Assembly: GCA_000424365.1 (NCBI GenBank) | Contig: AUJT01000006.1 | Coordinates: forward strand, 62,001 to 126,000 | Direction of reading: 5' to 3' | Origin: Lachnospiraceae bacterium NK4A144 | GTDB taxonomy: Bacteria > Bacillota > Clostridia > Lachnospirales > Lachnospiraceae | DNA length: 64,000 nt | In this document: piece after piece, positions 27,098 through 52,581 of the stretch | How positions within the stretch are numbered: position 1 is the stretch's first letter | How the letters are laid out: each line of letters starts with the position of its first letter | Position numbers and translations under genes: made by a program | Notes under the pieces: generated by a model | Seen by the model: only the letters and a program-made list of their open reading frames with translations | What the model was told of the DNA's origin: nothing | Databases searched by the model: none

Positions 27098-27099
27098 AC

Positions 27100-27291
27100 T
27101 ATGACAGGGTCAAAAGTAAAAAATCCGATTGAGTTTACTCAAAAAGGATTTTTTATTTGGGACCCGCAAAACACGAGCATGTAGCGTAATTACGCGGAAT
27201 GCGAGTGTTTTAGAATTGCGTGAGCTTCATAAGAAGCGAAGCAATTCGTGTCATAAGTAAGAGACAAAGGTACTTTTGACTCTTACGTCAT
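27100..27291. repeat. Full-length structured dispersed repeat
   Basis: About 190 bases. TATGACA (27100-27106) pairs with TGTCATA (27249-27255). Inside are GGGTC/GACCC with AAAAAATCC/GGATTTTTT and the TTGAGT-TT-ACTCAA tip. A second hairpin runs AAAACAC..GTGTTTT around GCGTAATTACGC. A third is GAATTGC..GCTTC-ATAA-GAAGC..GCAATTC. A final hairpin is GTAAGAG..CTCTTAC (27257-27286). The copy at 52422 has the same plan with compensating changes. It separates the first prepilin peptidase from tadZ. Confidence 0.8.
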
Positions 27292-27315
27292 TATAAATTA
27301 AGAAAGGAAAAACAA

Positions 27316-28311
27316 ATGGATAAGAATGTGCTTGCGGTTTTTGATACAAATGAAGAATATGTAACAAAACTCATGAACTATCTTATGGAATGCAGGTCGG
27401 TCCCGCTTGAAATACAGGGATTTACCGATAAGTCCTGCCTCAGGGACTATGTCAGGGAAAATGAGCCGGATATCTTGTTGATCCCGGAGGAACAGATAGA
27501 CGAGGAACTGGAAGCGGTTAATACAGGAGAAACAATGATCCTGTCAGAAGATGATACGGTTCATGATGACAAAGGGAGACGGACGATATTTCGATATCAG
27601 TCATCGGAAAATATAATGCGGGAAGTCATGAGTTATTATGCAGACAGACCGGAAACCGAATTTGTCACAAGTAATTCTACATCTACAAAAATGATCGGAA
27701 TATATTCTCCGGTAGGGAGATGTTTTAGGACGTCCTTTGCATTGGCGTTGGGACAGGTACTTGCAGAGAGGAACAAAGTGCTTTATGTAAACCTTGAAGG
27801 TTATTCCGGTTTTAACCAGCTTTTGCAGCAAAACTTTATGTCGGATATCTCGGATCTCCTTTTTTACGTGGGACAGAAAAAAAGAAATTTCCCGTGTAAG
27901 CTTGCGAGCATGGTTCAGAAGCTTGGAAATATGGACTTCATACCTCCTGTGATCTCGCCGCTTGATATCAGGTCTGTAGATAGAGAAAACTGGTTTATTT
28001 TCTTTAATGAGATCTTGAAATGCGACTATGACCACGTAATAGTGGATTTTGGCGATACGGTTGATGGATTTCTGGAACTTCTGCAGGGGTGCAGCAGGAT
28101 CTACACTCCTGTGCGCGAAGGCACGGTTTCTGACGCAAAAGTAGAGCAGTATGAAGCGATGCTCAGGATACTTGAAAAGGATGATATCCTTGAAAAAACG
28201 CTTAAACTTCGGATCCCGTATTTCAGCAGTCTTTCATGTCCTCCGCAGAATCTTGGACGGAGTGAACTCGGGGAATATGCAAGAAAACTTGTGGGCGGTG
28301 GAGCAGAATGA
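27316..28311 (+). CDS. tadZ: TadZ/CpaE-like pilus assembly ATPase-family protein
   Basis: 331 residues, AGAAAGGA upstream. TadZ/CpaE proteins are MinD/ParA relatives that place the Tad machinery at its cellular site. An N-terminal receiver-like domain (1-115) lacks clear phosphorylation residues. The C-terminal domain has the MinD layout (VLYVNLEGYSG, then DHVIVDFGD). The P-loop is deviant: SPVGRCFRTSF replaces KGGxGKT, with Arg at the lysine positions. It may not hydrolyse ATP normally. The gene overlaps tadA by four bases. Confidence 0.82.
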   Translation: MDKNVLAVFDTNEEYVTKLMNYLMECRSVPLEIQGFTDKSCLRDYVRENEPDILLIPEEQIDEELEAVNTGETMILSEDDTVHDDKGRRTIFRYQSSENIMREVMSYYADRPETEFVTSNSTSTKMIGIYSPVGRCFRTSFALALGQVLAERNKVLYVNLEGYSGFNQLLQQNFMSDISDLLFYVGQKKRNFPCKLASMVQKLGNMDFIPPVISPLDIRSVDRENWFIFFNEILKCDYDHVIVDFGDTVDGFLELLQGCSRIYTPVREGTVSDAKVEQYEAMLRILEKDDILEKTLKLRIPYFSSLSCPPQNLGRSELGEYARKLVGGGAE

Positions 28312-29501
28312 AAGATCTAAAGGAGATCCGTACAGAACTCCATGACATGATACTTAAGAAGATCGATCTCACGCGGGAAGTTCAGGATGAAGAGATAGAA
28401 GAACTTATTAGTCAGGTGATCACTGATAAAGGCAGGAGCATTTATTTAAGCCTCAAAGAAAAACAGAGACTTAAAACAGAGCTTTTTGATTCTATAAGGA
28501 AAAAGGGTGTTATACAGCCGCTTATCGATGATCCGAGCGTCACTGAAATAATGGTGAACGGAACAGAAAATATTTTTATAGAAAAAAATGGCAGGCTCAG
28601 CATGTGGGACAGGAGATTCGAATCCAGAGAAGCGCTTAACGATGTGGTTCAGCAGATAGCAGCATCCTCAAACAGGGTTGTAAACGAAGCGTCTCCCATA
28701 GTAGATGCCAGACTCGAAAACGGTTCCCGTGTAAATATTGTGATGAATCCTGTGGCACTTAATGGTCCGGTTATAACTATCCGTAGGTTTCCCGATCAGC
28801 CGATACGAATGGACGACCTTATCCGATTCGGGGCGGTGACAACTGAAGCCGTTGAATTTTTGAAAAAGTTGGTGATAAGCGGATACAACATCTTTATATC
28901 CGGTGGAACCGGCAGCGGAAAGACAACTTTTCTGAATGCCTTATCCGCTTTTATACCGGAGGAGACACGGGTAATCACTATCGAAGACTCAGCAGAGCTT
29001 CAGATCCAGGGAATCCCCAATCTCGTGAGCCTGGAAACCAGAAATGCAAACGTGGAGGGATGCCGCCCGATAACGATAAGAGATCTTATAAAATCATCAC
29101 TTCGTATGCGGCCGGACCGGATAGTAGTTGGAGAAGTACGTGACGGTGCGGCGTTGGATTTTCTTCAGGCTGCGAATACAGGACATGACGGCAGCTTGTC
29201 CACGGGACATGCAAATAGCGCAAAGGATATGCTCCTGCGTCTCGAAGTCATGGTATTAATGGCAGGAATGGAGCTTCCTCTTACGGCTATCAGGCGCCAG
29301 ATCGCTTCGGCGGTTGACATAATCGTTCATTTGGGACGTCTCCGTGATAAAAGCCGTAAAGTGCTTGAGATCACAGAAATCAGGGGATTTGAGAACGGGG
29401 AGATAATTATCCGTCCTGTATATCAATTTGACGGAGAGAGACTCACACAGATAAATCCGCTTATACACACAGAAAAACTTGAAAGGAGCGGACTTCTGTG
29501 A
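28308..29501 (+). CDS. tadA: Tad pilus secretion ATPase TadA/CpaF
   Basis: 397 residues; start overlaps the tadZ stop (ATGA). It is the hexameric ATPase that drives Flp pilin assembly. The Walker A motif GGTGSGKTTFLNAL, the Asp box, the Walker B region (DRIVVGEVRDGAALDFLQA) and the His box region GHDGSLSTGHAN are all intact. The N-terminal helical domain contains the CpaF signature VTEIMVNG. The next gene, tadB, overlaps its stop, so expression is probably coupled. Confidence 0.96.
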   Translation: MKDLKEIRTELHDMILKKIDLTREVQDEEIEELISQVITDKGRSIYLSLKEKQRLKTELFDSIRKKGVIQPLIDDPSVTEIMVNGTENIFIEKNGRLSMWDRRFESREALNDVVQQIAASSNRVVNEASPIVDARLENGSRVNIVMNPVALNGPVITIRRFPDQPIRMDDLIRFGAVTTEAVEFLKKLVISGYNIFISGGTGSGKTTFLNALSAFIPEETRVITIEDSAELQIQGIPNLVSLETRNANVEGCRPITIRDLIKSSLRMRPDRIVVGEVRDGAALDFLQAANTGHDGSLSTGHANSAKDMLLRLEVMVLMAGMELPLTAIRRQIASAVDIIVHLGRLRDKSRKVLEITEIRGFENGEIIIRPVYQFDGERLTQINPLIHTEKLERSGLL

Positions 29502-30235
29502 ATTATAAAGTTTATACTTTTTCATCAAATGAAAAGATACTCTATTCTATCGAAGGCGCGATCATTATTGCGATCACGGCATTCACTTTTTACAGATCAG
29601 TAATAGCATTTTTTATAATGCTTCCATCTCTTTATTTTTTCCTAAAATACAAAAAAGAACAATTGATACATAAGCGAAGACAAGAGCTGCTGCTGGAATT
29701 CCGTGAGCTCATTTTGTCGGTACAGTCTGCACTGAATGCAGGAAATTCCGTAGAGAATGCATTTATAGATGCGGGACGGGAAATTGAAAAAATATACGGT
29801 TCGGATGGACTGATGGCAAGAGAAGCAGCGATCATGACAAGGCGTCTCAGGTCAAATGAGACATTGGAAAGGATACTTCAGGATCTTGCAGATCGGTCAG
29901 GAATAGAAGACATATTGGATTTCGCAAATGTATTTGATGCGGCAAAGAGAAGTGGAGGAGATCTGACCGGTATTATACGGCGTGCGAGTAATGTGATCGG
30001 AGACAAGATAGATGTGCTCCGAGAGATCGAGACAGAACTCAGCGCAAAGCAGTATGAGACCCGGGTTATGGAAGTCGTTCCATTTGGGATAATTTTTTAC
30101 TTAAACATCACTCAATCGGATTTTCTATCCGTTCTTTATCACAATATAGCAGGCATTGCAGTAATGACGGTGTGTCTCATATTGTATTTCATTTCTTTCA
30201 AAATGGCTGAAAAGATCACAGCTATCGAGGTTTGA
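29498..30235 (+). CDS. tadB: Tad pilus inner-membrane platform protein TadB
   Basis: 245 residues; a GTG start overlaps the tadA stop. It has an N-terminal pair of TM helices (about 18-50), a cytoplasmic T2SSF domain containing QSALNAGNSVENAF and a C-terminal TM pair. TadB and TadC form the membrane platform contacted by TadA. It is somewhat shorter than many TadB proteins but keeps the whole T2SSF pattern. Confidence 0.9.
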   Translation: MNYKVYTFSSNEKILYSIEGAIIIAITAFTFYRSVIAFFIMLPSLYFFLKYKKEQLIHKRRQELLLEFRELILSVQSALNAGNSVENAFIDAGREIEKIYGSDGLMAREAAIMTRRLRSNETLERILQDLADRSGIEDILDFANVFDAAKRSGGDLTGIIRRASNVIGDKIDVLREIETELSAKQYETRVMEVVPFGIIFYLNITQSDFLSVLYHNIAGIAVMTVCLILYFISFKMAEKITAIEV

Positions 30236-30238
30236 TCA

Positions 30239-31696
30239 ATGCTCTTTTTTCATTTTCTGATAATCCTGATATTCCTGTTCTTGATCATATGGACATTGCG
30301 CGTTTCTGTACATGATATCTCAGATAAAAAGGACAGCGCTATTTATCGGATATTTCTAAAGATAGCGGTCTTTCTTATGAGGTATATACCTGCGTTAAAG
30401 AATGAAGACATTAGGAAAAAGCAAAAGCTGCTGGTGCCCTCAGGTGACGGAAAGACAGAGACAAAAAAGTATCTTGCAAGAAAACTTGCAGAAATCCTTC
30501 TGATAGTTTTTGTAGGAAATATTCTGGGGATGGGTATCACCTGTAAAAATACGCTTGAAAGCGGGATCATCCCGGGAAACCGGCTGATGCGGAATACTTA
30601 TGGTGGAGGAGACAGTGAAAATACCTTAACGGCTGAGGTTGGCGGAAAGACGCTGCCAGAAGAACTGCAGATAACAGTTGGAGAGCGTCAGTTAGACAGC
30701 AACGAAACAGAAGAAGCGTTTGAACGCATAGAAAACAGGCTTTATACGGAAATCCTCGGAGAAAACCGGAGTCTCGACCATGTGGATCATGATCTGTATC
30801 TGCCGGAAACAGTTGATGGAGAAAATGTGGTCATAAGCTGGCGGCCGGACACCTATGAGTGTATAGAAGGGGATGGCCGGATCCGTGAGGATTTTCGTGA
30901 TCCAAAAGGTATGGCGGTAATTCTTACGGCAGAGCTTTCTTACTTTGATAAAAGAAAAGAGATACGATTTCCGGTTAAGATCTATCCTGCTGTACAAAGT
31001 ACGGAAGAAGCGATCCATGACGCACTGCTTCATAAGATCGGGCAGATTGATGAAAAAACAGTATCAGAGGAAGAACTGAGATTACCCGGAAAGATCGGTG
31101 ATAAAAGTGTGATCTACCGCAGAAAAACAAAGCATACAGGGGCATTGATCCTTTTTCTCACATTTTTATGCGGTGGAGCTGTCTATATTGGCAGAGACAG
31201 GGATCTCGATGAAAAGTTAAGACTTAGAGAAAAGGAAATGCTCAGGGACTATCCTGAGATTCTGAGTAAGATGATCCTGCTTTTTAGTGCGGGAATGACC
31301 ATTCGGGGAACTGTTGACAAGCTGGTACACGATTACGAAAAGCGAAAGGAAACAACCGGAAAAGCAGCATATGCCTATGAGGAACTTCGAGTCACCTTGT
31401 ATGAAATGAATAGCGGTGTATCAGAGGCACAGGCATATGAAAACCTTGGAAATCGTGTTGGGATAAGGCATTACAGCAGACTGGGAGCTCTTCTCAGTCA
31501 GAATCTGAGAAAAGGAAGTGCCGGACTTCTGAGTGCTTTAGAGCAGGAAGCAGGGGAAGCTTTTGCGGAAAGAAAGTCTTTTGCCAGAAAGAGGGGCGAA
31601 GAAGCCGGGACAAAGCTCCTGCTTCCGATGGGGATAATGCTCATGATAGTCATGGTAATAGTTATAATACCGGCATTTTTATCATTTTCATTATAA
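30239..31696 (+). CDS. tadC: TadC-like platform protein with an extracytoplasmic Ig-like insert
   Basis: 485 residues, starting three bases after the tadB stop and much longer than usual for TadC. Residues 1-20 and 78-100 are TM segments. About 100-298 is a hydrophilic region without TM segments, predicted outside the membrane. Within it LYLPETVDGENVVISWRPDT resembles atrophied bacterial Ig-like domains. After a TM at 300-318, residues 325-485 are a T2SSF domain (FSAGMTIRGTVDKLV) ending in a TM segment. The insert could contact the pilus or the wall; this is inference. Confidence 0.82.
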   Translation: MLFFHFLIILIFLFLIIWTLRVSVHDISDKKDSAIYRIFLKIAVFLMRYIPALKNEDIRKKQKLLVPSGDGKTETKKYLARKLAEILLIVFVGNILGMGITCKNTLESGIIPGNRLMRNTYGGGDSENTLTAEVGGKTLPEELQITVGERQLDSNETEEAFERIENRLYTEILGENRSLDHVDHDLYLPETVDGENVVISWRPDTYECIEGDGRIREDFRDPKGMAVILTAELSYFDKRKEIRFPVKIYPAVQSTEEAIHDALLHKIGQIDEKTVSEEELRLPGKIGDKSVIYRRKTKHTGALILFLTFLCGGAVYIGRDRDLDEKLRLREKEMLRDYPEILSKMILLFSAGMTIRGTVDKLVHDYEKRKETTGKAAYAYEELRVTLYEMNSGVSEAQAYENLGNRVGIRHYSRLGALLSQNLRKGSAGLLSALEQEAGEAFAERKSFARKRGEEAGTKLLLPMGIMLMIVMVIVIIPAFLSFSL

Positions 31697-31749
31697 GAAT
31701 TAACAATTTTTGGGCGGGCGGGTGGAAAAATACGAAAGGAGGAAAGACT

Positions 31750-31911
31750 ATGCTTAAGAATTTTTTTGCAGAAGAAGACGCTATCGGAACAGTTGAGATG
31801 ATCTTGATTTTGGTTGTGCTTATTGGCCTTGTGATCATTTTTAAGGAACAGCTCACATCTCTTGTAAATAAGATCTTTAAGACCATTAACAGCAAGGCAA
31901 CATCTATCTAA
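31750..31911 (+). CDS. flp: Flp-type (Flp1-like) type IVb pilin
   Basis: 53 residues, start with AAAGGAGG upstream. The sequence begins MLKNFFAEEDAIGTVEMILI. It has a short charged leader, a GTVE motif in which the glutamate is the +5-like residue of type IV pilins, then a hydrophobic helix (ILILVVLIGLVIIF) and a short polar tail. This matches the putative Flp1-like pilin family of Firmicutes. It should be processed by one of the two A24 peptidases and form the pilus shaft. Position between tadC and the pseudopilins fits. Confidence 0.88.
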   Translation: MLKNFFAEEDAIGTVEMILILVVLIGLVIIFKEQLTSLVNKIFKTINSKATSI

Positions 31912-31989
31912 TAATTTCTTTTTGTCAAATTTCTTTTCGAACGATATTTAATTACTAACATTCACTGTATTCCTGAAAGGAGGTGTCGC

Positions 31990-33399
31990 ATGAGAAAAAA
32001 GGGCACGATAACAGTTTTTTTAAGTCTGATAATGGCGGTGATACTGTCGCTTGTGGGAGCTATAGTCATGAGCGCCAGATACAGTGCTGCGAGATGCAGG
32101 GCAGAGATGGTCATGGACATGGGATTGACTTCAATCTTTGCTGAATATAACAGAGAGCTGTTATCGCGCTATGATCTTTATTTCATCGATACCTCCTATG
32201 GAACAGGAAAAGCATCTGAAAAAAATACCGAAGAACATCTTCGTAAATATATAGATCATAACTGCAATCCTGCAAAAGGACTGTTGATATTTGATGCAGC
32301 GGACATGGCAGGACTGAAGCGAAAAAAAGTTCAGATACTGAGAGGGTCACTGGCAACTGACAATGGAGGCAGGGTTTTTAAGAGGCAGGCTATACATGCT
32401 GTTAAGGACAGATTTGGAATGTCGGTCATAGACGCGCTTAAGTCAAACTGCAATGAATATAAAGGCAGTGAAAAAGAGCGTGACAGTATCGAAATACGGA
32501 GAAGGGATATCCAGGAAAAGATGGATGGTCTGGACCTTGATGGAGACGCAAAAAAGATATCAAAAGTCTTTGACAGAAGGAAAGGAATCCTTAAGTACGT
32601 GCAGGACAACCTGGCGAAGGTTCCTGACACGGGGCTTCCTTTGGATAATACGGTTTCTTATAGGAAAAACATGGAAGGAATCGGAATCGTACGGCCTGAC
32701 AGTGACCCTGATTCAGCAGTTAACGAATTGCTTTTCACAGAATATATCGGCTGGAAAATGCATAATTACGCGGATGGTGAGAAAGACGGTCCTCAGCAGT
32801 GTGAAATGGAATATGTCATATGCGGCAAAAATACGGATATTGCCAATCTAAGAGCCGTATCTGAGAGGATTTTTGCATCGAGGGAACTGGTAAATACCAT
32901 TGCAGTATTTCAGGATGCCGGAAAGAAAGATCAGGCAAAACTTCTGGCTGCGGCTGCGGCGCTTCTCCTTGTATCGCCCGAACTCGAGGAACCGCTTACG
33001 AACATGATACTCATGGCATGGGGAACAGCTGAAAGTTTTGTGGATGTAAAGACTCTGCTTAATGGCGGTAAAGTTCCATTTATTAAAAAGGGAGAAGATT
33101 TCAGCATAGCGAATGTCCTGCAGATTCCGCTATACAAGGGCGTTTCGCCCAAAGCACAGGACAAAGGTGTTAGCTATGAAGATTATCTGAAGATCTTTCT
33201 TATGATGACAAATAAAACCGATAAGGTCAGACGTGCCATGGATGTAATTGAAATGAATGTCAGGGAAACACCGGGAAATAAGGGATTTCGTATGGATGGG
33301 TGTACGGAATATCTGGAAGTTGAGGCCTTTTTTAAGACAAAAAGCGGAAAAGACATATCAATAAGACGTGACTACGCATATGAACCGATCATAGAGTGA
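31990..33399 (+). CDS. DUF5702-like Tad-locus membrane-anchored protein
   Basis: 469 residues, start with AAAGGAGG upstream. The N-terminus MRKKGTITVFLSLIMAVILS is a TadE/TadG-like membrane anchor that could be a pseudopilin leader. A large extracytoplasmic region follows, with mixed alpha/beta character and one hydrophobic stretch near residues 315-350. The length and anchor resemble the DUF5702 family of clostridial Tad loci; the assignment is by pattern memory. Its role is unknown; a minor pilin or tip component is possible. Confidence 0.7.
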   Translation: MRKKGTITVFLSLIMAVILSLVGAIVMSARYSAARCRAEMVMDMGLTSIFAEYNRELLSRYDLYFIDTSYGTGKASEKNTEEHLRKYIDHNCNPAKGLLIFDAADMAGLKRKKVQILRGSLATDNGGRVFKRQAIHAVKDRFGMSVIDALKSNCNEYKGSEKERDSIEIRRRDIQEKMDGLDLDGDAKKISKVFDRRKGILKYVQDNLAKVPDTGLPLDNTVSYRKNMEGIGIVRPDSDPDSAVNELLFTEYIGWKMHNYADGEKDGPQQCEMEYVICGKNTDIANLRAVSERIFASRELVNTIAVFQDAGKKDQAKLLAAAAALLLVSPELEEPLTNMILMAWGTAESFVDVKTLLNGGKVPFIKKGEDFSIANVLQIPLYKGVSPKAQDKGVSYEDYLKIFLMMTNKTDKVRRAMDVIEMNVRETPGNKGFRMDGCTEYLEVEAFFKTKSGKDISIRRDYAYEPIIE

Positions 33400-33424
33400 T
33401 CAAGTAGAAAGGAGGTGGATACAG

Positions 33425-34372
33425 GTGGTATTTCACCGAAAAATTAATGTATGGCATGATACATTATGTAAACTAAAAAACACATCAATATTTATACTAA
33501 GTAAATCCCCCGAAGAAATAAATAAACAAAACCCGAAGAAAACCTTAAACACCGGCGAAATACCATCTGTATCCGCTTCCTTTAGGGGAAGCCTGACATT
33601 GGAAACAGCGATAGCCCTGCCGCTATTTTTATTTGCCATGATCGGACTCATGATGCTTGTAGAAGCCATACGCTTTTCCGGAAATATGCAGGCATCGCTG
33701 CATCAGGCTGCGAGAAACATGACGAATCATTCTTATGCGTATTCTTATTTGCCGGGCAGCGGAGGAGCAGGAGGAGAAGCCGCGGGGCGGATCATTTCAG
33801 TGACAGCCGGAAAGAGTATGACACTCGACGATCTGGGACGGGATTACACTGATGATTCACCCGTTGAAAACGGAAGTGACGGGATAAGCTTTATCCATTC
33901 ATCGATTATGGGGAGCGATCAGATGATAGATCTGTCAGCTGTCTACAAGATACGTACAGATATCCCGTTTCTTGGTTCACCGACATTTAAGGTGGCTGAC
34001 AGAGCTCGGATACGGGCATTTACGGGTTATGACAATACTCACGGACATGATACGGAAGATGATGAAGAAATGGTCTATGTCACGGATAAGGGTGTTGTAT
34101 ATCACAGAGACCGAGGATGCAAACATCTGGAACTCACTATCCGGGAGACAACGCCGGAAAACGTCGGAACAGAGCGTAATGCCGGAGGAGGTAAGTATTA
34201 TCCCTGTGAACACTGCGGAAAGAGAAAAGTGTCTAATGGAGATGATCTTTATATAGCCGAGGATGGCGACAGATGGCATACGTCAGTAACCTGCCCCGGA
34301 CTAAAAAGAACAATAAGTGTAGTTCCCTTGTCCGAAACAGGGCTTCCGCCATGTGCGGATTGCGGAATGTAG
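33425..34372 (+). CDS. tadE: TadE-like pseudopilin with two Cys-rich metal-binding-like modules
   Basis: 315 residues from a GTG preceded by AAAGGAGG. Residues 50-80 carry the TadE anchor GSLTLETAIALPLFLFAMIG. The last 100 residues hold two similar modules. One has YHRDRGCKHL followed by PCEHC; the other has WHTSVTCPGL followed by PCADC. Each offers one histidine and three cysteines, as expected for a small zinc site. This is unusual in a pseudopilin. The N-terminal 50 residues before the anchor are long for this family, so a later start is possible. Confidence 0.72.
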   Translation: MVFHRKINVWHDTLCKLKNTSIFILSKSPEEINKQNPKKTLNTGEIPSVSASFRGSLTLETAIALPLFLFAMIGLMMLVEAIRFSGNMQASLHQAARNMTNHSYAYSYLPGSGGAGGEAAGRIISVTAGKSMTLDDLGRDYTDDSPVENGSDGISFIHSSIMGSDQMIDLSAVYKIRTDIPFLGSPTFKVADRARIRAFTGYDNTHGHDTEDDEEMVYVTDKGVVYHRDRGCKHLELTIRETTPENVGTERNAGGGKYYPCEHCGKRKVSNGDDLYIAEDGDRWHTSVTCPGLKRTISVVPLSETGLPPCADCGM

Positions 34373-34386
34373 AGAAAGAGGCAGAA

Positions 34387-34803
34387 ATGATCGCAAATCT
34401 TTTATCTGGTGCATGTCTTTTAACCTGTACTGTCACAGATATACGAAAAAGAGTGATATATCCTATATTGCTCCTGCCGTTTTTTATAGCCGGTATTATG
34501 TGGCAGTTCATGAGCCGCGGCAGAGGAGTGATGGATATCGCAGGAGGAGTTTTCACAGGAATTGTATTGCTCATAACAAGTCATCTTACGAAAGGGAAGA
34601 TCGGTGCCGGAGATGGACTTATTTTTATCGTTACAGGGGTTTTATTGGGGACACTGGAGAATATAAGACTTTTAACGATGGCATCGGTATTGTCGGCTGT
34701 TTGTTCAATAGTATTGCTTATTACCCGCAGGTGTGGGAGAGATACGGAGCTGCCTTTTGCACCGTTTATTTTGGCCGCTTTTATTATAGGGATCGTATTG
34801 TGA
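34387..34803 (+). CDS. A24-type prepilin peptidase, second copy
   Basis: The ATG at 34387, 14 bases after the previous stop and behind GAGGC, is preferred over a longer frame that would overlap the upstream gene. This gives 138 residues with several TM segments. The catalytic aspartates are in TCTVTDIRKR and KIGAGDGLIF. It resembles the peptidase at 26690 in layout but differs in sequence, so it is a divergent paralogue. It may serve a different substrate, such as the pseudopilins flanking it. Confidence 0.85.
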   Translation: MIANLLSGACLLTCTVTDIRKRVIYPILLLPFFIAGIMWQFMSRGRGVMDIAGGVFTGIVLLITSHLTKGKIGAGDGLIFIVTGVLLGTLENIRLLTMASVLSAVCSIVLLITRRCGRDTELPFAPFILAAFIIGIVL

Positions 34804-34810
34804 GGGATAT

Positions 34811-45156: not shown

Positions 45157-45181
45157 TTTAAAAATAAAATACATTCTAAGG

Positions 45182-45211
45182 CCGGGGAAAATAACATTTC
45201 CCCGGTTTTTT
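45182..45211 (+). terminator. Rubrerythrin terminator
   Basis: CCGGGGAAA (45182-45190) pairs with TTTCCCCGG (45197-45205), followed by TTTTTT. Confidence 0.93.
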
Positions 45212-45337
45212 ATGCACAAAGGATTGCATATATTCAATTTTCGTAAAGGGGTTAATAAAAACACAGTGGAGGACGATATAAAAGGTGGAGCGGTGATAGT
45301 TATTTTCTCGCTTACAAGATACTCTCCCCCATATAAG

Positions 45338-45403
45338 GAACCAATGGCAGGCACTGTTGGTTCCGGCAAAGGACAGGTTTTGCGGCCTGTCCTTTTGCTT
45401 GCC
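45338..45403 (+). ncRNA. Two strong hairpins in a gene-free gap, candidate small RNA end or terminator
   Basis: GGAACCAA (45338-45345) pairs with TTGGTTCC. Next, GGCAAAGGACAGG (45365-45377) pairs with CCTGTCCTTTTGC, which contains a T-run. The 370-base gap 45157-45526 has no convincing ORF in either strand. The AT-rich stretch 45410-45480 may hold the promoter of the sensor kinase (TATACT near 45479). Confidence 0.35.
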
Positions 45404-45526
45404 CGCAGAACTCCGGTTTTTACAAAAAGTTTATAAGTTTTTATAAAGCTTTTTCTTAAGAGAGGTTTTTAGTCTGTTATACTGTAAAAGAGTTTATAGG
45501 GATGGCTTTAACAGTGAGTGATAACA

Positions 45527-47149
45527 ATGAAAACTAATCTAAAAGCGAGACTATTCGGAACATTTCTTGCAGTGGTTTTGATACCGATAATGCTGTTTTC
45601 GATATCGATCATGTGTCTCACAAATTACCAAAGAAGTCTGGTACTTAAAAATTTTGGAATACAATCAGATGCCTACGGGTTACTGACCAACAGTGTCGGT
45701 TTGTTTTCCAGTGTAACGGATGATATATTTAATACGTTGGTGCAGTATTCGGAATTATCGTCAGAGAAACTTGAGGATAAGACCGTCCTTCGTGAGATCA
45801 ATGCTGAGCTGAGCGCAAAATCGTCTTTTTTGATCGTCCGTAAGGATAAGGATATATACTATACCGGAGATGAAAAAGATACTCTCGAGGTGCTTAGCGT
45901 ACTTCCGTCAGGAAACAGTAAAGAGGATAATAAAGACGGTGAAGTATACTTAAGAGACAGTGGATACTTAATAAAACAGGTATGTTTTGATTTTTCGGAT
46001 GGGTCTGATGGAAGCGCATTTATCATAACTCACGTAAATGATCTGGTGCCCCAGATGAAATCTACGGCTGTACAGCTTTGTATAGCGTTTATAATAATAT
46101 TGGTGATAACGGGACTCATGCTGGTGTCATGGATCTATCGGACTATGGTAGCACCCCTTCGACAGATAACGGATGCTACGCAGAAAGTCGCTGAGGGAGA
46201 GCTTGATTTTGAGATCAGCATACCTCGCGGCGATGATGAGATAGCGACGCTTTGCAGAAACTTTGATGAGATGCGTATACGTCTGAAACGGTCAGCAGAT
46301 AAGAGCGTCGAGAGTGAAAGTGAGAATCGTACTCTGATCAGTAATATCACGCATGATCTGAAGACCCCGGTGACTTCCATTAAAGGTTATGCCGAGGGTA
46401 TACTTGATGGAGTGGCGGACACGCCTGAAAAGCAGGAAAGATACGTACGAACGATCCTCAATAAAGCCAATGATATGAACAGGCTTATTAATGAGCTGAC
46501 TTTTTATTCAGGTATAGATACGAACCGTATCCCATATAATTTTGCCCGCATAAATATAAGTGATTATTTTGATGATTGTGTAGATGAAATAGGAATGGAT
46601 CTGGACAGTCAGAATATAGAGCTTAACTATATGAATTATTTGGATCGGGGAACGCAGATAATCGCTGATCCGGAGCAGCTTAAAAAAGTAATAAACAATA
46701 TCATCGGAAATTCCGTAAAGTATATGGATAAGCCCAAAGGAGTGATCTCCATAAGACTTAAGGATCAGGAGTCATCCGTAGTTGTAGAGATAGAGGATAA
46801 CGGCAAGGGAATAGACGTTAAGGATATACCATATATTTTCGACCGCTTTTATCGAAGCGATGCTTCCAGAAATTCTGCTCGAGGCGGTTCCGGTATAGGA
46901 TTGTCCATCGTAAAGAAGATCGTGGAAGATCATGGCGGACGTGTTTGGGCGACGAGCCATCCCGGAACAGGAACTACTATTCTGATAGAATTTCGTAAAT
47001 ATATAGAAGTTAAGGAAACTGAAGATGCTGCAGGCAATGAAAATGAGCATGACAGGAATGGAAACAGGAAAAATAACCGAAAATCCGGTAAGAGGATCAT
47101 GGGCATTTTCGGCGGCGACACTAATGGGCATAGAACGGAGGAAATATGA
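45527..47149 (+). CDS. Membrane sensor histidine kinase with HAMP domain
   Basis: 540 residues from the ATG at 45527; an in-frame GTG nine bases earlier is also possible. TM segments at about 10-30 and 190-212 flank an extracytoplasmic sensor. A HAMP domain follows, then HisKA with the phospho-accepting histidine in ISNITHDLKTPVTSIKGYA near residue 276. The ATPase domain has NNIIGNSVKYMD, VEIEDNGKGID and GGSGIGLSIVKKI. The C-terminal 40 residues are charged and low-complexity. It overlaps the regulator gene by four bases, so the two form a pair. Confidence 0.93.
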   Translation: MKTNLKARLFGTFLAVVLIPIMLFSISIMCLTNYQRSLVLKNFGIQSDAYGLLTNSVGLFSSVTDDIFNTLVQYSELSSEKLEDKTVLREINAELSAKSSFLIVRKDKDIYYTGDEKDTLEVLSVLPSGNSKEDNKDGEVYLRDSGYLIKQVCFDFSDGSDGSAFIITHVNDLVPQMKSTAVQLCIAFIIILVITGLMLVSWIYRTMVAPLRQITDATQKVAEGELDFEISIPRGDDEIATLCRNFDEMRIRLKRSADKSVESESENRTLISNITHDLKTPVTSIKGYAEGILDGVADTPEKQERYVRTILNKANDMNRLINELTFYSGIDTNRIPYNFARINISDYFDDCVDEIGMDLDSQNIELNYMNYLDRGTQIIADPEQLKKVINNIIGNSVKYMDKPKGVISIRLKDQESSVVVEIEDNGKGIDVKDIPYIFDRFYRSDASRNSARGGSGIGLSIVKKIVEDHGGRVWATSHPGTGTTILIEFRKYIEVKETEDAAGNENEHDRNGNRKNNRKSGKRIMGIFGGDTNGHRTEEI

Positions 47150-47838
47150 GCAGCAGAATTCTTATCATTGAAGATGAAGAATCTATTGCAGAGCTTGAAA
47201 AGGATTATCTTGAGCTTTCGGATTTTGAAGTCGAAACAGAAAATAATGGAAAAACAGGTCTTGATCGGGCGCTTAAAGAAGAATGGAATCTGATCATTCT
47301 CGATCTGATGCTTCCGGACGTAGATGGTTTCAAGATCTGCGAACAGATAAGAGCCGCAAAAAATACTCCGGTGATCATTGTGTCAGCCAAGAAGGATGAT
47401 GTAGATAAGATACACGGTCTCGGGCTCGGTGCAGACGATTATATGACAAAGCCATTTTCGCCAAGTGAGCTCGTAGCCAGAGTAAAGGCACACCTCGCAA
47501 GGTATGAGCGTTTGATAAAGAGCGGCATGCCGGAAAATGATATGGTTGAGATACGCGGTCTAAAGATCGATAAGACCGCCCGTCGGGTATGGGTCAATGG
47601 TGAAGAAAAACCTTTTACTACAAAGGAATTTGATCTTCTTACGTTCCTTGCATCCCATCCGAACCACGTATATTCTAAAGAGGAGTTATTTAGGAATATC
47701 TGGGATATGGACTCTATAGGAGATATAGCAACAGTAACTGTCCATATCAAAAAGATCCGAGAAAAGATCGAGATCGACTCATCAAATCCGCAATACATAG
47801 AGACTATATGGGGGGTGGGTTACCGCTTCAGAATCTAG
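47146..47838 (+). CDS. OmpR/PhoB-family response regulator
   Basis: 230 residues; start overlaps the kinase stop (ATGA) and has GGAGG upstream. An N-terminal receiver with LIIEDEE, the phospho-acceptor aspartate in IILDLMLPDVDG (near residue 53) and MTKPFSPSEL leads a C-terminal winged helix (about 130-228, with TVTVHIKKIREKIE as recognition helix). It is a DNA-binding activator or repressor. Its targets cannot be deduced here. Confidence 0.95.
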   Translation: MSSRILIIEDEESIAELEKDYLELSDFEVETENNGKTGLDRALKEEWNLIILDLMLPDVDGFKICEQIRAAKNTPVIIVSAKKDDVDKIHGLGLGADDYMTKPFSPSELVARVKAHLARYERLIKSGMPENDMVEIRGLKIDKTARRVWVNGEEKPFTTKEFDLLTFLASHPNHVYSKEELFRNIWDMDSIGDIATVTVHIKKIREKIEIDSSNPQYIETIWGVGYRFRI

Positions 47839-47839
47839 T

Positions 47840-47959
47840 AAATACTGGTCTTCTTGTCCGATAGCACGTATCTCAAAGTCTCGGCGTAGCCCACTACGCC
47901 TTCGACTTTGAGATACGCACTCTCGAACAAGAATCCTGCGTATTTACAACGTGACATCA
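47840..47959. repeat. Long hairpin with CCCA loop and repeat-family end
   Basis: Left arm 47840-47889 and right arm 47894-47945 are largely complementary around the loop CCCA (47890-47893). The perfectly paired core covers CGTATCTCAAAGTC and GGCGTAG. CGTGACATCA at 47950-47959 then matches the right end of the repeats at 26479 and 52572. It starts one base after the regulator stop. Confidence 0.75.
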
Positions 47960-47994
47960 TTAAGTTGTCATTATATAAAAAAAGGGGAGAAATA

Positions 47995-48849
47995 GTGTCT
48001 GAGGTTAAGAGATTTGCTGTTTTGATTGATATAGAGAATGTCTCGCAGAAATATGTGGGACTCATTATGGATGAGGCGAGTAACTATGGGGATCTCACGA
48101 TCAAGAGAGCCTATGGGGACTGGACTCAGCCGGCAAGCGCTTCGTGGAGAAAGCTGCTTCTTGAGAATTCGATCATTCCTATGCAGCAGTTCAATAATAC
48201 GTTTGGGAAGAATTCATCGGATTCGGCATTGATAATAGATGCTATGAAGATATTATATAACAACAATGTTGATGGATTTTGCCTTGTATCCAGTGATTCT
48301 GACTTTACCCGTCTTGCAGCGACACTCAAGGAAGAGGGAAAAACAGTAGTCGGAATGGGAGAAAGTAAGACTCCGTCAGCGCTTATCAAGGCATGCGATT
48401 CCTTCAAAATGCTTGATGTGCTCTACAGAGAACAGAACCAGGAAAAGGAAAAAGAGAAGGACGCATCGAAGACACAGGAAAAGGAAAGCGCAAAGACCGC
48501 TAAGGGAAAGACGACAAAAAGGGTATCAACCCGTACAACTGTCAGAAAAACTGCGCTGAAAGCATCTGAGTCAGGAAAGGCAGAGACTGCCGCAGAAAAG
48601 GATGTAGAGAAGCCGCAGAGCAATCTTACAAAGCTGTCTACTATTGAGAAGGCTATCCGCCAAATCATCACTGCAAATGATGATGAAAACGGCATGAATA
48701 TTTCGAGTCTGGGAAACAGTCTGCAGCGCAGATATCCGGATTTTGATACCCGTAATTATGGTTCGCCAAAGCTCAGTAAATTCCTCGTTCAGTTTAATTC
48801 GCTTGAACTGACGAAGATCGGTAACTCTACATACGTAAATATAAAATAA
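47995..48849 (+). CDS. NYN-domain putative ribonuclease with OST-HTH/LOTUS domain
   Basis: GTG at 47995 behind GGGGAG gives 284 residues; a longer frame would run through the hairpin. The N-terminal NYN (PIN-like) domain has FAVLIDIENVS, KNSSDSALIIDAMKIL and CLVSSDSDFTRLA, which supply the acidic residues of a metal-dependent RNase. A Lys/Thr-rich linker follows. The last 75 residues match the OST-HTH/LOTUS fold (DENGMNISSLGNSLQRRYPD). The pair of domains suggests an RNA-degrading enzyme that binds RNA, but no target is known. Confidence 0.86.
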   Translation: MSEVKRFAVLIDIENVSQKYVGLIMDEASNYGDLTIKRAYGDWTQPASASWRKLLLENSIIPMQQFNNTFGKNSSDSALIIDAMKILYNNNVDGFCLVSSDSDFTRLAATLKEEGKTVVGMGESKTPSALIKACDSFKMLDVLYREQNQEKEKEKDASKTQEKESAKTAKGKTTKRVSTRTTVRKTALKASESGKAETAAEKDVEKPQSNLTKLSTIEKAIRQIITANDDENGMNISSLGNSLQRRYPDFDTRNYGSPKLSKFLVQFNSLELTKIGNSTYVNIK

Positions 48850-48901
48850 TGACAGGGTCAAAAGTAAAAATCCGACAATGTCGGATTTTTTACTTTTGGG
48901 A
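48849..48901. repeat. Short form of the dispersed repeat, terminator-like
   Basis: ATGACAGGGTCAAAAGTAAA starts at the NYN stop codon. AAAAGTAAAAATCCGACA pairs with TCGGATTTTTTACTTTT. The T-run in the stem may terminate transcription on the plus strand. Confidence 0.65.
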
Positions 48902-48907
48902 TTTAAC

Positions 48908-49639
48908 ATGATATATAAGAGAAATAAATTAAGAGTAATATTTGAGGATAAGGATATCCTTGTAATTCACAAGAACGCCGGAGTGGCATCCGAGACACGA
49001 CGGATCGGAGAACAGGATTGTGTCAGCCTCGCAAAGAATTATCTGGCGGACAGGCAGCGCGCAGAAAATCCCGGAAAGCAGGGAAAAGCGCCGTGGGTAG
49101 CATTGGTTCACAGGCTGGACCAGCCGGTAGAGGGAATATTGGTACTGGCAAAAAACAGTAAAGCAGCAGCGATTCTTTCGGAACAGATTAAAAAGGGGGA
49201 AATGTATAAGGAGTACATGACACTCGTGCTTCCGGAAGAAGGCATCGGACTTACAAGCGGAGAAAGTGTACACCTTACGGACTTTTTGCTTAAGGACGCA
49301 AAGACAAATACCAGCAAAGCGGTGGATGAAGGTACTCCCGATGCAAAATGCGCGGAGTTGGAATATGAAGTTGTTGATGAGGAAAATCCTTTTTCGGAAA
49401 GCGGAGCAAGACTTCTAAAGATACATCTATTGACCGGGCGTCATCACCAGATACGGGTGCAGCTCTCACACGCCGGACTTCCGGTGATCGGAGACAGAAA
49501 GTATGGAGCTATGCCGGAGGGGTACAGAGGAGCTCTTTGCCTCGCTGCAAGAAAACTGGTATTTCGTCATCCGGGATCGGGAAAGGAAATGACATTTGAG
49601 CTGGAGACATCAGAGATAGATTTTATGAAAAAAAAATAA
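48908..49639 (+). CDS. RluA/RluD-family RNA pseudouridine synthase
   Basis: The ATG at 48908 gives 243 residues; only a weak GGGA lies upstream and the repeat element reaches almost to the start. The family isomerises uridine to pseudouridine in rRNA or tRNA. The catalytic aspartate lies in ALVHRLDQPVEGILVLAKN, where the usual TSG is changed to VEG. The block TGRHHQIRVQLSHAGLPVIG is typical. There is no N-terminal S4 domain. The exact RNA target is unknown. Confidence 0.9.
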   Translation: MIYKRNKLRVIFEDKDILVIHKNAGVASETRRIGEQDCVSLAKNYLADRQRAENPGKQGKAPWVALVHRLDQPVEGILVLAKNSKAAAILSEQIKKGEMYKEYMTLVLPEEGIGLTSGESVHLTDFLLKDAKTNTSKAVDEGTPDAKCAELEYEVVDEENPFSESGARLLKIHLLTGRHHQIRVQLSHAGLPVIGDRKYGAMPEGYRGALCLAARKLVFRHPGSGKEMTFELETSEIDFMKKK

Positions 49640-49652
49640 GCTCATAAAGAGG

Positions 49653-49694
49653 GCGGAGATCGTTGAAAAATTAACATACGATCTCCGTTTTTTT
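49653..49694 (+). terminator. Terminator after the pseudouridine synthase
   Basis: GCGGAGATCGT (49653-49663) pairs with ACGATCTCCGT (49678-49688), followed by TTTTTT. Confidence 0.92.
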
Positions 49695-49719
49695 CGCATA
49701 AAATAAGGACTTCCGCAGG

Positions 49720-49748
49720 TTGACAACAGGGTAGCACACGGATAAAAT
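49720..49748 (+). promoter_or_regulatory. Sigma-A promoter of ackA-cca
   Basis: TTGACA (49720-49725), 17-base spacer, TAAAAT (49743-49748), about 70 bases before the ackA start. Confidence 0.8.
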
Positions 49749-49818
49749 CAAAACAGTGTGTCTAGAAAAGATTTAGTCAAATAACAACAAACGTTGTTAG
49801 TGATTGGAGGAGAAGGAA

Positions 49819-51018
49819 ATGAAAGTTCTTGTAATAAACTGTGGAAGTTCATCACTTAAGTACCAGCTTATCGATTCCGAGACTGAGCTTGTAATGGCAA
49901 AGGGTCTCTGCGAGAGGATCGGTATTGATGGAAGCAATCTTGAGTATAAGAGAGGCGAGAGCCCGAAGACAAGCACTCAGGTTGAGATGAAGGATCACAC
50001 AGATGCAGTTAATCTGGTCCTCGAGAAATTAAGCGATCCTGAAGAGGGCGTTGTATCTTCTCTTTCCGAGATCGAGGCAGTTGGACACCGCGTAGTCCAT
50101 GGCGGTGAGAAATTTACAAAGTCTGTTCTTATCACAGAGGAAGTTATTAAGGGAATCGAAGAGTGCAATGATCTGGCACCTCTTCACAATCCTGCAAATA
50201 TCATCGGTATCCGTGCATGTCAGTCACTTATGCCGGGAGTACCGCAGGTTGCTGTATTTGATACAGCTTTCCATCAGACGATGGAGCCGAAGTCATACCT
50301 CTATGCGGTTCCTTATGAGTACTATAAGAAATATAAGGTTCGTCGTTACGGTTTCCACGGCACAAGCCACGATTATGTATCAAAGCGCGCAGCAGAGATG
50401 CTTGCAAAGGACATCACAGATCTCAAGCTTATCATCTGCCATCTTGGAAATGGTGCATCCGTAAGTGCAGTTCAGAACGGTAAATGTGTAGATACATCAA
50501 TGGGTCTTACTCCTCTTGAAGGTCTTATCATGGGTACACGTTCCGGAGATATTGATCCTGCAGTTATCACATATCTTATGGAAAAGGAAAATATGTCTGC
50601 TCCTGAGGTGCTTAATATACTTAATAAAAAATCAGGCATTCTCGGTCTTTCAGATGGCATTTCTTCTGACTTCCGTGATATTTCTGAGGCAGTAGCATCC
50701 GGAAATGAGCAGGCAGAGGTTACTCTCGATGCATATGCTTTAAGAGTAGCAAAGTACATCGGCGCCTATGCAACAGAGATGCAGGGAGTAGATGCTATCG
50801 TTATGACAGCAGGTGCAGGTGAGAATAACTCAACCGTTCGTGAGAAGATCTGCAAGTATCTCGGATGGCTCGGAACAAGCTTTGATCCTGAGATGAACAA
50901 GATCCGTGGTGAGGAGTTATTCTTAAGCAAGCCTGAGGACAAGGTACAGCTTATGGTTGTACCGACAAACGAGGAACTTGCGATCGCACGTCAGACAGTA
51001 GGAGTAGTAAGAGGCTAA
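49819..51018 (+). CDS. ackA: Acetate kinase
   Basis: The ATG at 49819 has GGAGGAGAAGGA upstream; 399 residues, the usual length. AckA interconverts acetyl phosphate and acetate with ATP formation, a main energy step in fermentation. VLVINCGSSSLKYQLID, VGHRVVHGGEKF, RRYGFHGTSH and MGTRSGDIDP are all canonical. No pta is visible beside it. The next gene, cca, starts at its stop codon. Confidence 0.98.
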   Translation: MKVLVINCGSSSLKYQLIDSETELVMAKGLCERIGIDGSNLEYKRGESPKTSTQVEMKDHTDAVNLVLEKLSDPEEGVVSSLSEIEAVGHRVVHGGEKFTKSVLITEEVIKGIEECNDLAPLHNPANIIGIRACQSLMPGVPQVAVFDTAFHQTMEPKSYLYAVPYEYYKKYKVRRYGFHGTSHDYVSKRAAEMLAKDITDLKLIICHLGNGASVSAVQNGKCVDTSMGLTPLEGLIMGTRSGDIDPAVITYLMEKENMSAPEVLNILNKKSGILGLSDGISSDFRDISEAVASGNEQAEVTLDAYALRVAKYIGAYATEMQGVDAIVMTAGAGENNSTVREKICKYLGWLGTSFDPEMNKIRGEELFLSKPEDKVQLMVVPTNEELAIARQTVGVVRG

Positions 51019-52406
51019 TGAAGATCGAACTTCCCGAAAAAGTGAGATTTATCATAGAGACTATTGAGAACGCAGGCTTCGAGGCATTTGCCGTCGGAGG
51101 CTGCGTTCGTGATTCTATGATGAATAGACAACCTAATGACTGGGATATAACCACCAGTGCAAAGCCGCAGGAGATAAAGGCTCTCTTTCACAGGACTATA
51201 GATACCGGTATCCAGCATGGCACAGTTACGGTCATGATAAAAAAAGAGGGCTTTGAGGTTACAACTTATCGTATTGACGGTGAGTATGAAGATTCCCGAC
51301 ATCCAAAGGAAGTGACTTTTACACCTGACCTGTCTGAAGATCTGAGACGTCGTGACTTTACGATCAATGCCATGGCATATAATGACAGGACAGGACTCGT
51401 AGATCTCTTTAATGGTGCAGATGATCTGGAGAAAAAGGTGATAAGGGCTGTGGGAGATCCTGAAGAACGCTTCACAGAAGATGCTCTTCGTATCATGAGG
51501 GCTTTTCGTTTTGCGGCTCAGCTTGATTTCTCTATAGATGAAGTCACACGTACTGCGGCGGAAAAACTCGCTCCTACACTCAAAAATATCTCAGGGGAAC
51601 GTATCCGCGACGAGCTTACAAAACTTATCGTTTCAGATCATCCTGAATATCTGAAAGAACTGTATGATTCCGGTATTACCGCAATAGTCATGCCTGAATT
51701 TGATAAGTGCATGGAAACACCTCAAAACAATCCTCATCACGTGTATAACGTAGGTGATCATATCCTGTGCTCCATGATGGAACTTGAGCATAAATGTCTC
51801 AGTGAATTTTTGAAGAAATCAGGATATGAAGAGGATGAGAATACATTCAGGATACTGAGATTTGCCATGATGCTCCATGACATAGGTAAGCCGGACTGCC
51901 GTGTTACGGATGAAGATGGTGTGGATCATTTTTACAGGCATGCTGACAAGGGTGAACGCATTGCAGAAGAGATATTACGGAGATTAAAAGAGGACAATCA
52001 TACGATAGATCTCGTGCGTAGACTGGTCCGTTTTCATGATGACAGACCGGCACCTAATGCAAAGTCAGTCCGCAAGGCTGCATCCAGGATAGGAAGCGAT
52101 ATCTTTCCGCTTTATCTCGCAGTTCATCATTGCGATGTTCTTGCCCAGAGTGATCACCTAAAGGAAGAAAAACTCGAGCATGAAAAGCAGATACTGGACC
52201 TGTTCCTAAAGAGCAGAGAGCAGGGAGAATGTCTCTCACTCAAGGAACTGGACATCAATGGCGGAGATCTTATTAAAGAAGTTGGAATGAAGCCGGGACC
52301 GGAGATGGGACAGGTTCTTAATGCACTTCTTGATAAGGTAATAGATGATCCTGTATTGAATGAGAAACAAAAGCTGATTTCACTCGCAAAAGACTTGATT
52401 AGATGA
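51018..52406 (+). CDS. cca: CCA-adding tRNA nucleotidyltransferase with HD domain
   Basis: 462 residues; the start overlaps the ackA stop (TAATG). The class II nucleotidyltransferase core has AFAVGGCVRDSMMNRQPNDW, the DWDIT metal site and RRRDFTINAMAY (written RRDFTINAMAY here). An HD domain with MLHDIGKPDC lies near residues 285-400. The enzyme adds or repairs the 3' CCA of tRNA; the HD domain may give additional phosphodiesterase activity. A structured repeat follows its stop. Confidence 0.95.
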   Translation: MKIELPEKVRFIIETIENAGFEAFAVGGCVRDSMMNRQPNDWDITTSAKPQEIKALFHRTIDTGIQHGTVTVMIKKEGFEVTTYRIDGEYEDSRHPKEVTFTPDLSEDLRRRDFTINAMAYNDRTGLVDLFNGADDLEKKVIRAVGDPEERFTEDALRIMRAFRFAAQLDFSIDEVTRTAAEKLAPTLKNISGERIRDELTKLIVSDHPEYLKELYDSGITAIVMPEFDKCMETPQNNPHHVYNVGDHILCSMMELEHKCLSEFLKKSGYEEDENTFRILRFAMMLHDIGKPDCRVTDEDGVDHFYRHADKGERIAEEILRRLKEDNHTIDLVRRLVRFHDDRPAPNAKSVRKAASRIGSDIFPLYLAVHHCDVLAQSDHLKEEKLEHEKQILDLFLKSREQGECLSLKELDINGGDLIKEVGMKPGPEMGQVLNALLDKVIDDPVLNEKQKLISLAKDLIR

Positions 52407-52421
52407 CAATAAGACAATAAT

Positions 52422-52581
52422 ATGATGTCAGGGTAAAAAGTAAAAAATTCGATTGTGCTTGCACAAGAAGAATTTTTTATTTGGAACCCGCAAAACACGA
52501 GCATGTAGCGTAATTACGCGGAATGCGAGTGTTTTAGAATTGCGGGAGCTGCATAAGCAGCGTAGCAATTCGTGACATCAG
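52422..52581. repeat. Full-length structured dispersed repeat, second large copy
   Basis: TGATGTCA (52423-52430) is the exact complement of TGACATCA (52573-52580). Internal stems are GGGT/ACCC with AAAAAATTC/GAATTTTTT and tip TTGTGC-TT-GCACAA, the AAAACAC..GTGTTTT hairpin and GAATTGC..GCTGC-ATAA-GCAGC..GCAATTC. It follows cca and is the only notable feature of the 259-base gap 52407-52665. Confidence 0.8.

What the first reader, a model, noticed from the sequence alone, without database searches (positions are those of the whole stretch)
27100..52581. Dispersed intergenic repeat family with compensating base changes at several stems
The copies at 27100-27291 and 52422-52581 share one plan but differ inside stems in a paired way. 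Outer pair: TATGACA/TGTCATA against TGATGTCA/TGACATCA. First hairpin: ATCC/GGAT against ATTC/GAAT, with tip TTGAGT-TT-ACTCAA against TTGTGC-TT-GCACAA. Third hairpin: GCTTC-ATAA-GAAGC against GCTGC-ATAA-GCAGC. Loops are unchanged while both arms change together, so the folded form is selected or regenerated. Relatives lie at 1416, 26410, 48849 and 47950.
Basis: seen in the sequence. Interest (0 to 1): 0.8.

Follow-up and report, generated by a model that had tools for sequence, protein, structure and literature searches.

The report
Jumping DNA repeat carrying folded RNA
The repeats are copies of a catalogued but unexplained bacterial RNA shape, and here that shape turns out to be the body of a tiny mobile DNA element that spreads in Lachnospiraceae bacteria while keeping its fold.

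Summary
Both window copies match Rfam RF01699 (Clostridiales-1, a candidate sRNA from 2010, no function assigned) at 116 and 127 bits; the host genome has 87 matches. They are not fixed RNA genes. They are the body of a ~190-bp non-autonomous DNA transposon (MITE) with 17-bp inverted ends and 7-8 bp target duplications (26 of 49 end pairs, against 0.55% of mismatched flanks). Genome G030 lacks both window copies; G009 has a ~36-bp end-to-end mini-element at one site and nothing at the other. Young (~99% identical) and older (~88%) copies coexist. In 45 copies from 29 genomes, 28 of 30 tested pairs have double changes and 94.7% of cells pair (shuffled 76%), so the fold is maintained. The left transposon end is part of the fold, and tandem neighbour genes run with the RNA strand 28 to 9. 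G-U pairs are few (1.8% or 3.8% of stem cells, depending on pairs kept; riboswitch control 7.1%). RNA selection, folded DNA and templated arm repair thus stay partly unresolved. No transposase was found. New variant of a known kind.

The parts
27091..27097 (.). left target-site duplication ATTATGA; includes the stop codon of the upstream A24 prepilin peptidase gene
   Evidence: the same site in genome G009 has ATTATGA on both sides of its mini-element
27098..27289 (+). full-length MITE (192 bp), older subfamily B; RF01699 match at 27099-27256
   Evidence: insertion absent in G030 and G039. In one search this copy itself scored no exact duplication (1 mismatch)
27100..27106 (+). left transposon end, which is also the 5' strand of outer stem P0 (partner 27249-27255)
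   Evidence: fold
27107..27165 (+). stems P1 and P2 with the apex hairpin
   Evidence: fold; covariation
27168..27211 (+). stem P3, with conserved tandem G-A and GNA/GGA internal loops
   Evidence: fold; loop conservation
27213..27247 (+). stem P4, with GGGA/GGA-type internal loop
   Evidence: fold
27257..27286 (+). 3' hairpin; its 3' arm is most of the right terminal inverted repeat
   Evidence: fold
27290..27296 (.). right target-site duplication ATTATAA (1 mismatch to the left one)
52424..52580 (+). second copy, subfamily B, lacking the 3' hairpin and right end; RF01699 match at 52423-52580
   Evidence: insertion absent in G009 and G030, which have about 35 bp of flank that the host copy lacks
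26403..26409 (.). left target-site duplication ATGTAAA of the 112-bp sister element
26410..26521 (+). 112-bp sister MITE with the same ends but an unrelated hairpin body in place of the RNA
   Evidence: absent in G030
26522..26528 (.). right target-site duplication ATGTAAA
48848..48908 (+). shortened derivative (right limit approximate): left end with the P2 arms as a near-perfect palindrome
   Evidence: left end found
1418..1457 (+). truncated left end, broken inside the apex hairpin (right limit approximate)

Best explanation
Each copy is a miniature, non-autonomous DNA transposon. Shown: 17-bp inverted ends, 7-8 bp duplication of an AT-rich target, empty sites in sister genomes, young and old copies side by side. 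Inferred: an unidentified transposase, probably of the DDE type, acts in trans on the ends and inserts the element at AT-rich intergenic sites. Shown: the body is a conserved multi-stem fold (RF01699), and the left end of the transposon forms the 5' side of its outer stem and first inner stem. Inferred: the fold is kept by selection on the source copies that stay mobile, most likely as an RNA read from the sense strand. In that form it is tolerated or useful in leaders and intergenic gaps of transcripts and offers conserved internal-loop purines to a protein. Dead copies then decay. Local template switching at hairpin arms probably helps produce the paired changes.
For: Ends: 236 matches to the end motif (up to 2 mismatches) in the genome against 1 for the reversed control. 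Duplications: 26 of 49 end pairs have exact 7-8 bp duplications; mismatched flank pairs reach 0.55%. In copies taken from other genomes, 23 of 57 (16 of 30 genomes) have a 7-bp duplication against 4.5% in the control. Empty sites for both window copies. Young burst: 45 subfamily-A copies at median 98.7% identity, 14 of them identical; 15 subfamily-B copies at 88%. Structure: 28 of 30 pairs with double changes, 94.7% of cells paired, 0 of 500 shuffles reach either. The tandem G-A loop bases are 96-100% conserved, while paired columns average 78%. Orientation: of 53 insertions with open frames on both sides, tandem neighbours run with the element 28 times and against it 9 times (p = 0.0026). G-U exceeds A-C 25 to 11 on the core pairs plus P0, 61 to 15 with all 32 pairs plus P0.
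Against: No transposase gene between these ends was found: five Pfam families in 11 or 15 genomes and 42 loci with the end motif. G-U pairs are only 1.8% of stem cells (23 of 1259, 28 pairs) or 3.8% (55 of 1439, all 32 pairs), against 7.1% (17 of 240) in a c-di-GMP-I control. In that control G-U exceeds A-C 17 to 3, a stronger strand signal than here. The antisense strand folds nearly as significantly (z -9.9 against -10.3), and the lower sense energy in 45 of 45 copies is mostly a composition effect. In relatives the orientation bias is weak: 8 to 4 tandem once the one host copy is set aside. Not every internal-loop base is conserved (several sit at 51-71%). Elements with the same ends but no RNA also carry duplications, so the fold is not needed for movement as such. 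23 of 49 end pairs lack an exact 7-8 bp duplication. No expression data were available.
Confidence: 0.62

Rival explanations
1. The element is a MITE, but the paired changes come from templated repair: polymerase switches between hairpin arms and copies one arm onto the other. The fold is thus regenerated and not selected.
For: Several double changes in one genome are transversions with no intermediate seen, such as T-A, G-C and A-T at one P4 pair. G-U is scarce. The apex loop CTTG appears as its reverse complement CAAG in 2 of 45 copies. The 48848 derivative and the 36-37 bp end-to-end elements look like fold-back palindromes.
Against: Templated repair would erase the internal mismatches, yet the tandem G-A bases are among the most conserved positions. 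Long-range stem P0, about 150 nt apart, also covaries. Older copies substitute half as often at paired as at unpaired sites, 0.056 against 0.111.
Confidence: 0.2
2. The fold acts as single-stranded DNA, recognised by a transposase or host protein when the strand is exposed, as integron attC sites are.
For: Mostly Watson-Crick covariation with few G-U; GNA triloops and sheared G-A pairs also form in DNA (recalled).
Against: A clean 7-8 bp duplication points to ordinary double-strand insertion. G-U still exceeds A-C, 25 to 11 or 61 to 15. The CUUG apex loop is a known stable RNA loop (recalled).
Confidence: 0.12
3. RF01699 is a genuine host small-RNA gene or cis-regulator that simply exists in many copies.
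For: Filed by Rfam as Gene; sRNA; copies sit upstream of or between genes, more often in the sense direction.
Against: Target duplications, empty sites, near-identical bursts and composite forms. Conserved gene neighbourhoods across genera were not tested systematically.
Confidence: 0.04

Closest known systems
Clostridiales-1 RNA (Rfam RF01699)
   Same: Sequence and fold: both window copies score 116-127 bits against a gathering score of 48.
   Different: Rfam files it as an sRNA gene and the table of Weinberg 2010 as a probable RNA, not cis-regulatory (PMC2864571, passages). Mobility, ends and target duplications are not mentioned in the passages seen; Additional File 1 could not be read.
BOX elements of Streptococcus pneumoniae
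   Same: Modular, hairpin-rich, short, non-autonomous repeats with inverted ends paired to one another in the predicted fold, thought to affect co-transcribed genes (PMC3049150, passages).
   Different: Different sequence and host. Here the fold shows extensive cross-genus covariation; the word stem 'covari' does not occur in that paper's held text.
QMITE2 of Coxiella burnetii and prokaryotic MITEs in general
   Same: 7-9 bp duplications, inverted repeats and a short core that folds as a transcript (PMC10969869, passages).
   Different: The core here is an independently conserved RNA family. The review's held text contains no 'clostridi', 'lachnospir', 'butyrivibrio' or 'rfam'.
REPIN-RAYT elements (recalled)
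   Same: Dispersed palindromes moved in trans.
   Different: REPINs make no target duplication (recalled); these elements do.

Membership tests
Clostridiales-1 RNA (RF01699) | covariance-model score above the gathering cut-off over the full model | tested here: met
   127.4 and 116 bits, model positions 1-166 of 166, cut-off 48
Clostridiales-1 RNA (RF01699) | transcribed as a discrete small RNA | not testable with these tools
   no expression data available
MITE | terminal inverted repeats | tested here: met
MITE | target-site duplication of near-constant length | tested here: met
   7 or 8 bp in 26 of 49 end pairs, control 0.55%; 23 of 57 copies from other genomes, control 4.5%
MITE | insertion polymorphism (empty sites) | tested here: met
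   27098 element absent in G030 and G039, a mini-element in G009; 52424 copy absent in G009 and G030
MITE | too short to encode a transposase, high copy number | tested here: met
   190-192 bp; 87 RF01699 matches, 68 over the cut-off
MITE | partner transposon with matching ends | tested here: inconclusive
   none found in the fetched loci of five Pfam transposase families over 11 or 15 genomes or in 42 loci with the end motif; the search was partial
BOX element | boxA-boxB-boxC module sequence | not tested
   no BOX sequence was compared; analogy only
REPIN-RAYT / IS200-IS605 type | insertion without target duplication (recalled) | tested here: not met
   duplications present

The most novel reading that the evidence does not exclude
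The RNA is a working part of the transposon. The left end is shared between the transposase site and the RNA's outer stems, so RNA and ends must evolve together, and the folded RNA (or nascent transcript) recruits or licenses an unusual trans-acting transposase. That would make Clostridiales-1 an RNA-assisted MITE and explain why a parasite keeps a cross-genus RNA fold.
Probability: 0.17. Interest if true: 0.85.

Novelty: new variant of a known kind. Interest (0 to 1): 0.52.

Why it matters
A structured RNA candidate listed since 2010 gets a concrete identity, which changes how RF01699 annotations should be read: as insertions, not host sRNA genes. It also gives a rare system in which one genome holds dozens of copies of a fold at different ages. 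Selection on structure, decay after insertion and templated repair of stems can then be separated, and the co-evolution of a transposon end with an RNA stem can be tested directly.

Tried and rejected
Host sRNA gene: rejected because of duplications and empty sites. Transposase hunt: PF00872, PF01609, PF01610 and PF12762 in 11 genomes and PF13610 in 15 genomes. Inverted ends around the hits were listed for the fetched loci, and none listed match the MITE ends; 5 of 35 PF01609 places were not fetched, 8 identical copies were left out, and several loci stop at contig ends. The nearest in design is a 483-aa protein in G032 with ends GGTAGTGTCAAAT / GATAGTGTCAAATG and an 8-bp duplication; I do not claim it as partner. 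The own-genome ISL3 copies have different ends. Among 42 loci with the exact end, 8 have convergent ends 1-3.5 kb apart; open frames between them are ordinary genes (L346; 10 proteins from the other 7 loci, none a transposase). A scan of viral contigs for an 18-base form of the end gave 2 stretches, looked at only with the end-motif scan. Internal promoter: pattern scan at chance level, 4 found against 3.4 expected. Lower sense-strand folding energy as evidence for RNA: set aside, because shuffles show it is composition.

Rows and pairs dropped: of 87 genome matches, the own-genome alignment used 63 (68 over the cut-off, then length 145-170); of these, 41 and 15 went into subfamilies A and B (45 and 15). 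The orientation count used 57 of 68, with both neighbours in 53; 2 of the 57 lie inside an open frame. A1 holds 45 copies chosen for diversity from those fetched. One search used 57 of 59 copies (2 cut by contig ends). In one search a few end pairs are alternative registers of one element (L073, L082). For the G-U count of 1.8% I left out 4 of the 32 RNAalifold pairs, among them 22-66, which reads G-U in 29 of 45 rows; one search shows that 23 of those 29 rows have a G-C one column over, so the pair is out of register. With all 32 pairs G-U is 3.8%. In one search I printed the wrong stretch for L185.

Literature: search listings only; passages from PMC2864571, PMC10969869 and PMC3049150. No report of RF01699 as a mobile element was found in those searches; supplements were not readable.

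Full report
What is there. Rfam assigns both to RF01699, Clostridiales-1, over the whole model at 116 and 127 bits against a gathering score of 48. Folded as RNA they are far more stable than shuffles (z -10.3 and -11.4). The host genome (4.09 Mb, 68 contigs) has 87 matches, 68 over the cut-off.

It moves. Beyond the Rfam boundaries the commonest element is 190 bp. It starts GATGTCAGGGTCAAAAG, and after the RNA body it has a short hairpin ending in CTTTTGACCCTTACATC, the inverted repeat of the start. The end motif occurs 236 times in the genome with up to two mismatches, against one for the reversed control pattern. Among 49 end pairs in the fetched loci, 26 are flanked by exact duplications of 7 bp (17) or 8 bp (9); pairing the left flank of one with the right flank of another gives 7-8 bp in 0.55%. 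The other 23 have shorter or no exact duplication, the 27098 element among them (1 mismatch). In copies from other genomes, 23 of 57 (16 of 30 genomes) show a 7-bp duplication, control 4.5%. The duplicated sequences are AT-rich.

Empty sites. At the 27098 site, genomes G030 and G039 carry the same gene pair (A24 peptidase, then a TadZ-like gene) with no element. G009 has only a ~36-bp element made of the two ends at the same site, with ATTATGA on both sides. The 26410 sister element is also absent in G030. At the 52424 site, between a CCA-adding-enzyme-like gene and a PEGA-domain gene, G009 and G030 have uninterrupted sequence; the host copy also lacks its right end and about 35 bp of that flank.

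Ages and modules. Forty-five copies form a young subfamily (median pairwise identity 98.7%, 14 identical) and 15 an older one at 88%; both window RNA copies are in the older one. Elements with the same ends carry the RNA body alone (mostly 182-191 bp), an unrelated hairpin module (112 bp), combinations of modules (199-399 bp), or little but the ends (36-90 bp). The RNA is therefore one cargo of a wider family.

Distribution. In the relatives sample, 67 of 145 genomes (host included) match, 59 over the cut-off; 65 of the 67 are in the host family and two in other families of the order (strict filters, few candidates scored per genome, so a lower bound). In an even draw of the phylum, 4 of 299 match: the host and three of its family. 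Genomes appear to carry their own subfamily with its own end sequence. Of 42 named stretches with the host's exact end, 41 are titled Lachnospiraceae or Butyrivibrio and one is a Gastranaerophilales MAG.

The fold is maintained. On a sequence-only alignment of 45 copies from 29 genomes (A1), RNAalifold finds 32 pairs, 29 with double changes. On a 30-pair structure, 94.7% of 1349 cells pair, 28 of 30 pairs have double changes, 265 cells are double-changed (shuffled mean 80), and no shuffle of 500 reaches any of the five measures; sliding the partner by 1-3 columns drops pairing to 29-46%. Key unpaired bases are better conserved than the stems: G87/A88 at 98 and 100%, G134/A135 at 96%, P4 loop A156 and A173 at 100%, with paired columns at 78% on average; other loop positions vary (51-71%). 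That is the mark of a three-dimensional motif and not of a palindrome alone.

Selected or regenerated. Within the host genome's 15 older copies, 26 pair cells are compensated, 29 mismatched and 5 are G-U; substitutions per site are 0.056 at paired and 0.111 at unpaired positions. Selection on active source copies explains this, with later decay giving the mismatches. Two things do not fit a plain selected RNA. First, G-U makes up 23 of 1259 stem cells on 28 pairs, or 55 of 1439 on all 32 pairs, where 29 of the 55 come from one pair that is out of register. The c-di-GMP-I control from an overlapping set of genomes has 17 of 240 (alignment A2; mainly one helix, so a rough yardstick). Second, some derivatives are fold-backs (48848; 36-37 bp elements), and the apex loop occurs in both orientations. 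I read this as selection plus some templated repair. The conserved mismatched loops argue against repair alone.

Which strand. G-U exceeds A-C by 25 to 11 on core pairs plus P0 (p = 0.03, sequences not independent) and 61 to 15 with all pairs plus P0; the riboswitch control is more lopsided, 17 to 3. Conserved loop bases are purines on the sense strand. Among 53 insertions with open frames on both sides, tandem neighbours are codirectional with the element 28 times and opposed 9 times (p = 0.0026), 14 lie between divergent and 2 between convergent frames (open frames, not curated genes). A small sample from relatives gives 8 and 4 once one host copy is set aside. These favour an RNA in the sense direction but do not prove it. 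The energy advantage of the sense strand is mainly composition.

Mechanism. Best reading: a MITE mobilised in trans by an unidentified, probably DDE, transposase, with a body kept folded because source copies that lose the fold leave fewer descendants. The left end doubles as the 5' side of stems P0 and P1, so the end sequence and the RNA must change together, as the representatives from other genomes suggest. Shown: mobility, duplication, covariation, the shared end. Inferred: transposase type, RNA form, the reason for selection.

What is not settled. The mobiliser was not found in five transposase families, nor between convergent ends in eight loci of relatives. G027, rich in copies, has one weak hit in one of the five families and none in the others, so the mobiliser may belong to a family not searched or may have been lost.

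Known or new. MITEs with folded transcripts are known (PMC10969869 and PMC3049150, passages), and RF01699 is known as a candidate RNA (PMC2864571, passages). Joining the two, with target duplications, empty sites and copies of different age, was not found in the papers searched. I rate it a new variant of a known kind.

Noticed in passing
L105:2048-2083, L117:2183-2218, L082:1931-1967, L100:1957-1993: 36-37 bp elements that consist only of the ends; they look like fold-back palindromes of a single end, and may be the smallest mobile form or deletion products.
   Followed up: partly
window:35355-35393 and window:42945-42982: Another dispersed hairpin (GTTACGTGAGCGAGC...GCGAGTGAACAGTAAC) occurs alone and as a module inside the composites. 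In G032 a 457-aa IS4-like element sits in or beside a GTGTGAACAGTAAC-type repeat at several of its nine sites.
   Followed up: partly
window:22737-22812 and window:22881-22955: Two c-di-GMP-I riboswitch aptamers in tandem upstream of the open frame at 22979.
   Followed up: no
alignment A1, columns 42-45: The apex tetraloop CTTG appears as its reverse complement CAAG in 2 of 45 copies (L229, L235) and as CTAG in three others (L138, L206, L219), as if the hairpin tip had been inverted.
   Followed up: partly
A1 stem columns: G-U pairs are few for a structured RNA (1.8-3.8% of stem cells against 7.1% in a riboswitch control); unexplained.
   Followed up: partly
L014, L016, L053, L058, L063, L065, L067: Several contig ends of the host assembly fall in or close to these elements, so the copy number is probably underestimated.
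   Followed up: no
window:42332-42811: An 87-nt tandem repeat inside an open frame.
   Followed up: no
L142, L144, L146 (G032): Three copies of an element with a 483-aa IS240-like protein, ends GATAGTGTCAAATG and 8-bp duplications: similar in design to the MITE ends.
   Followed up: partly
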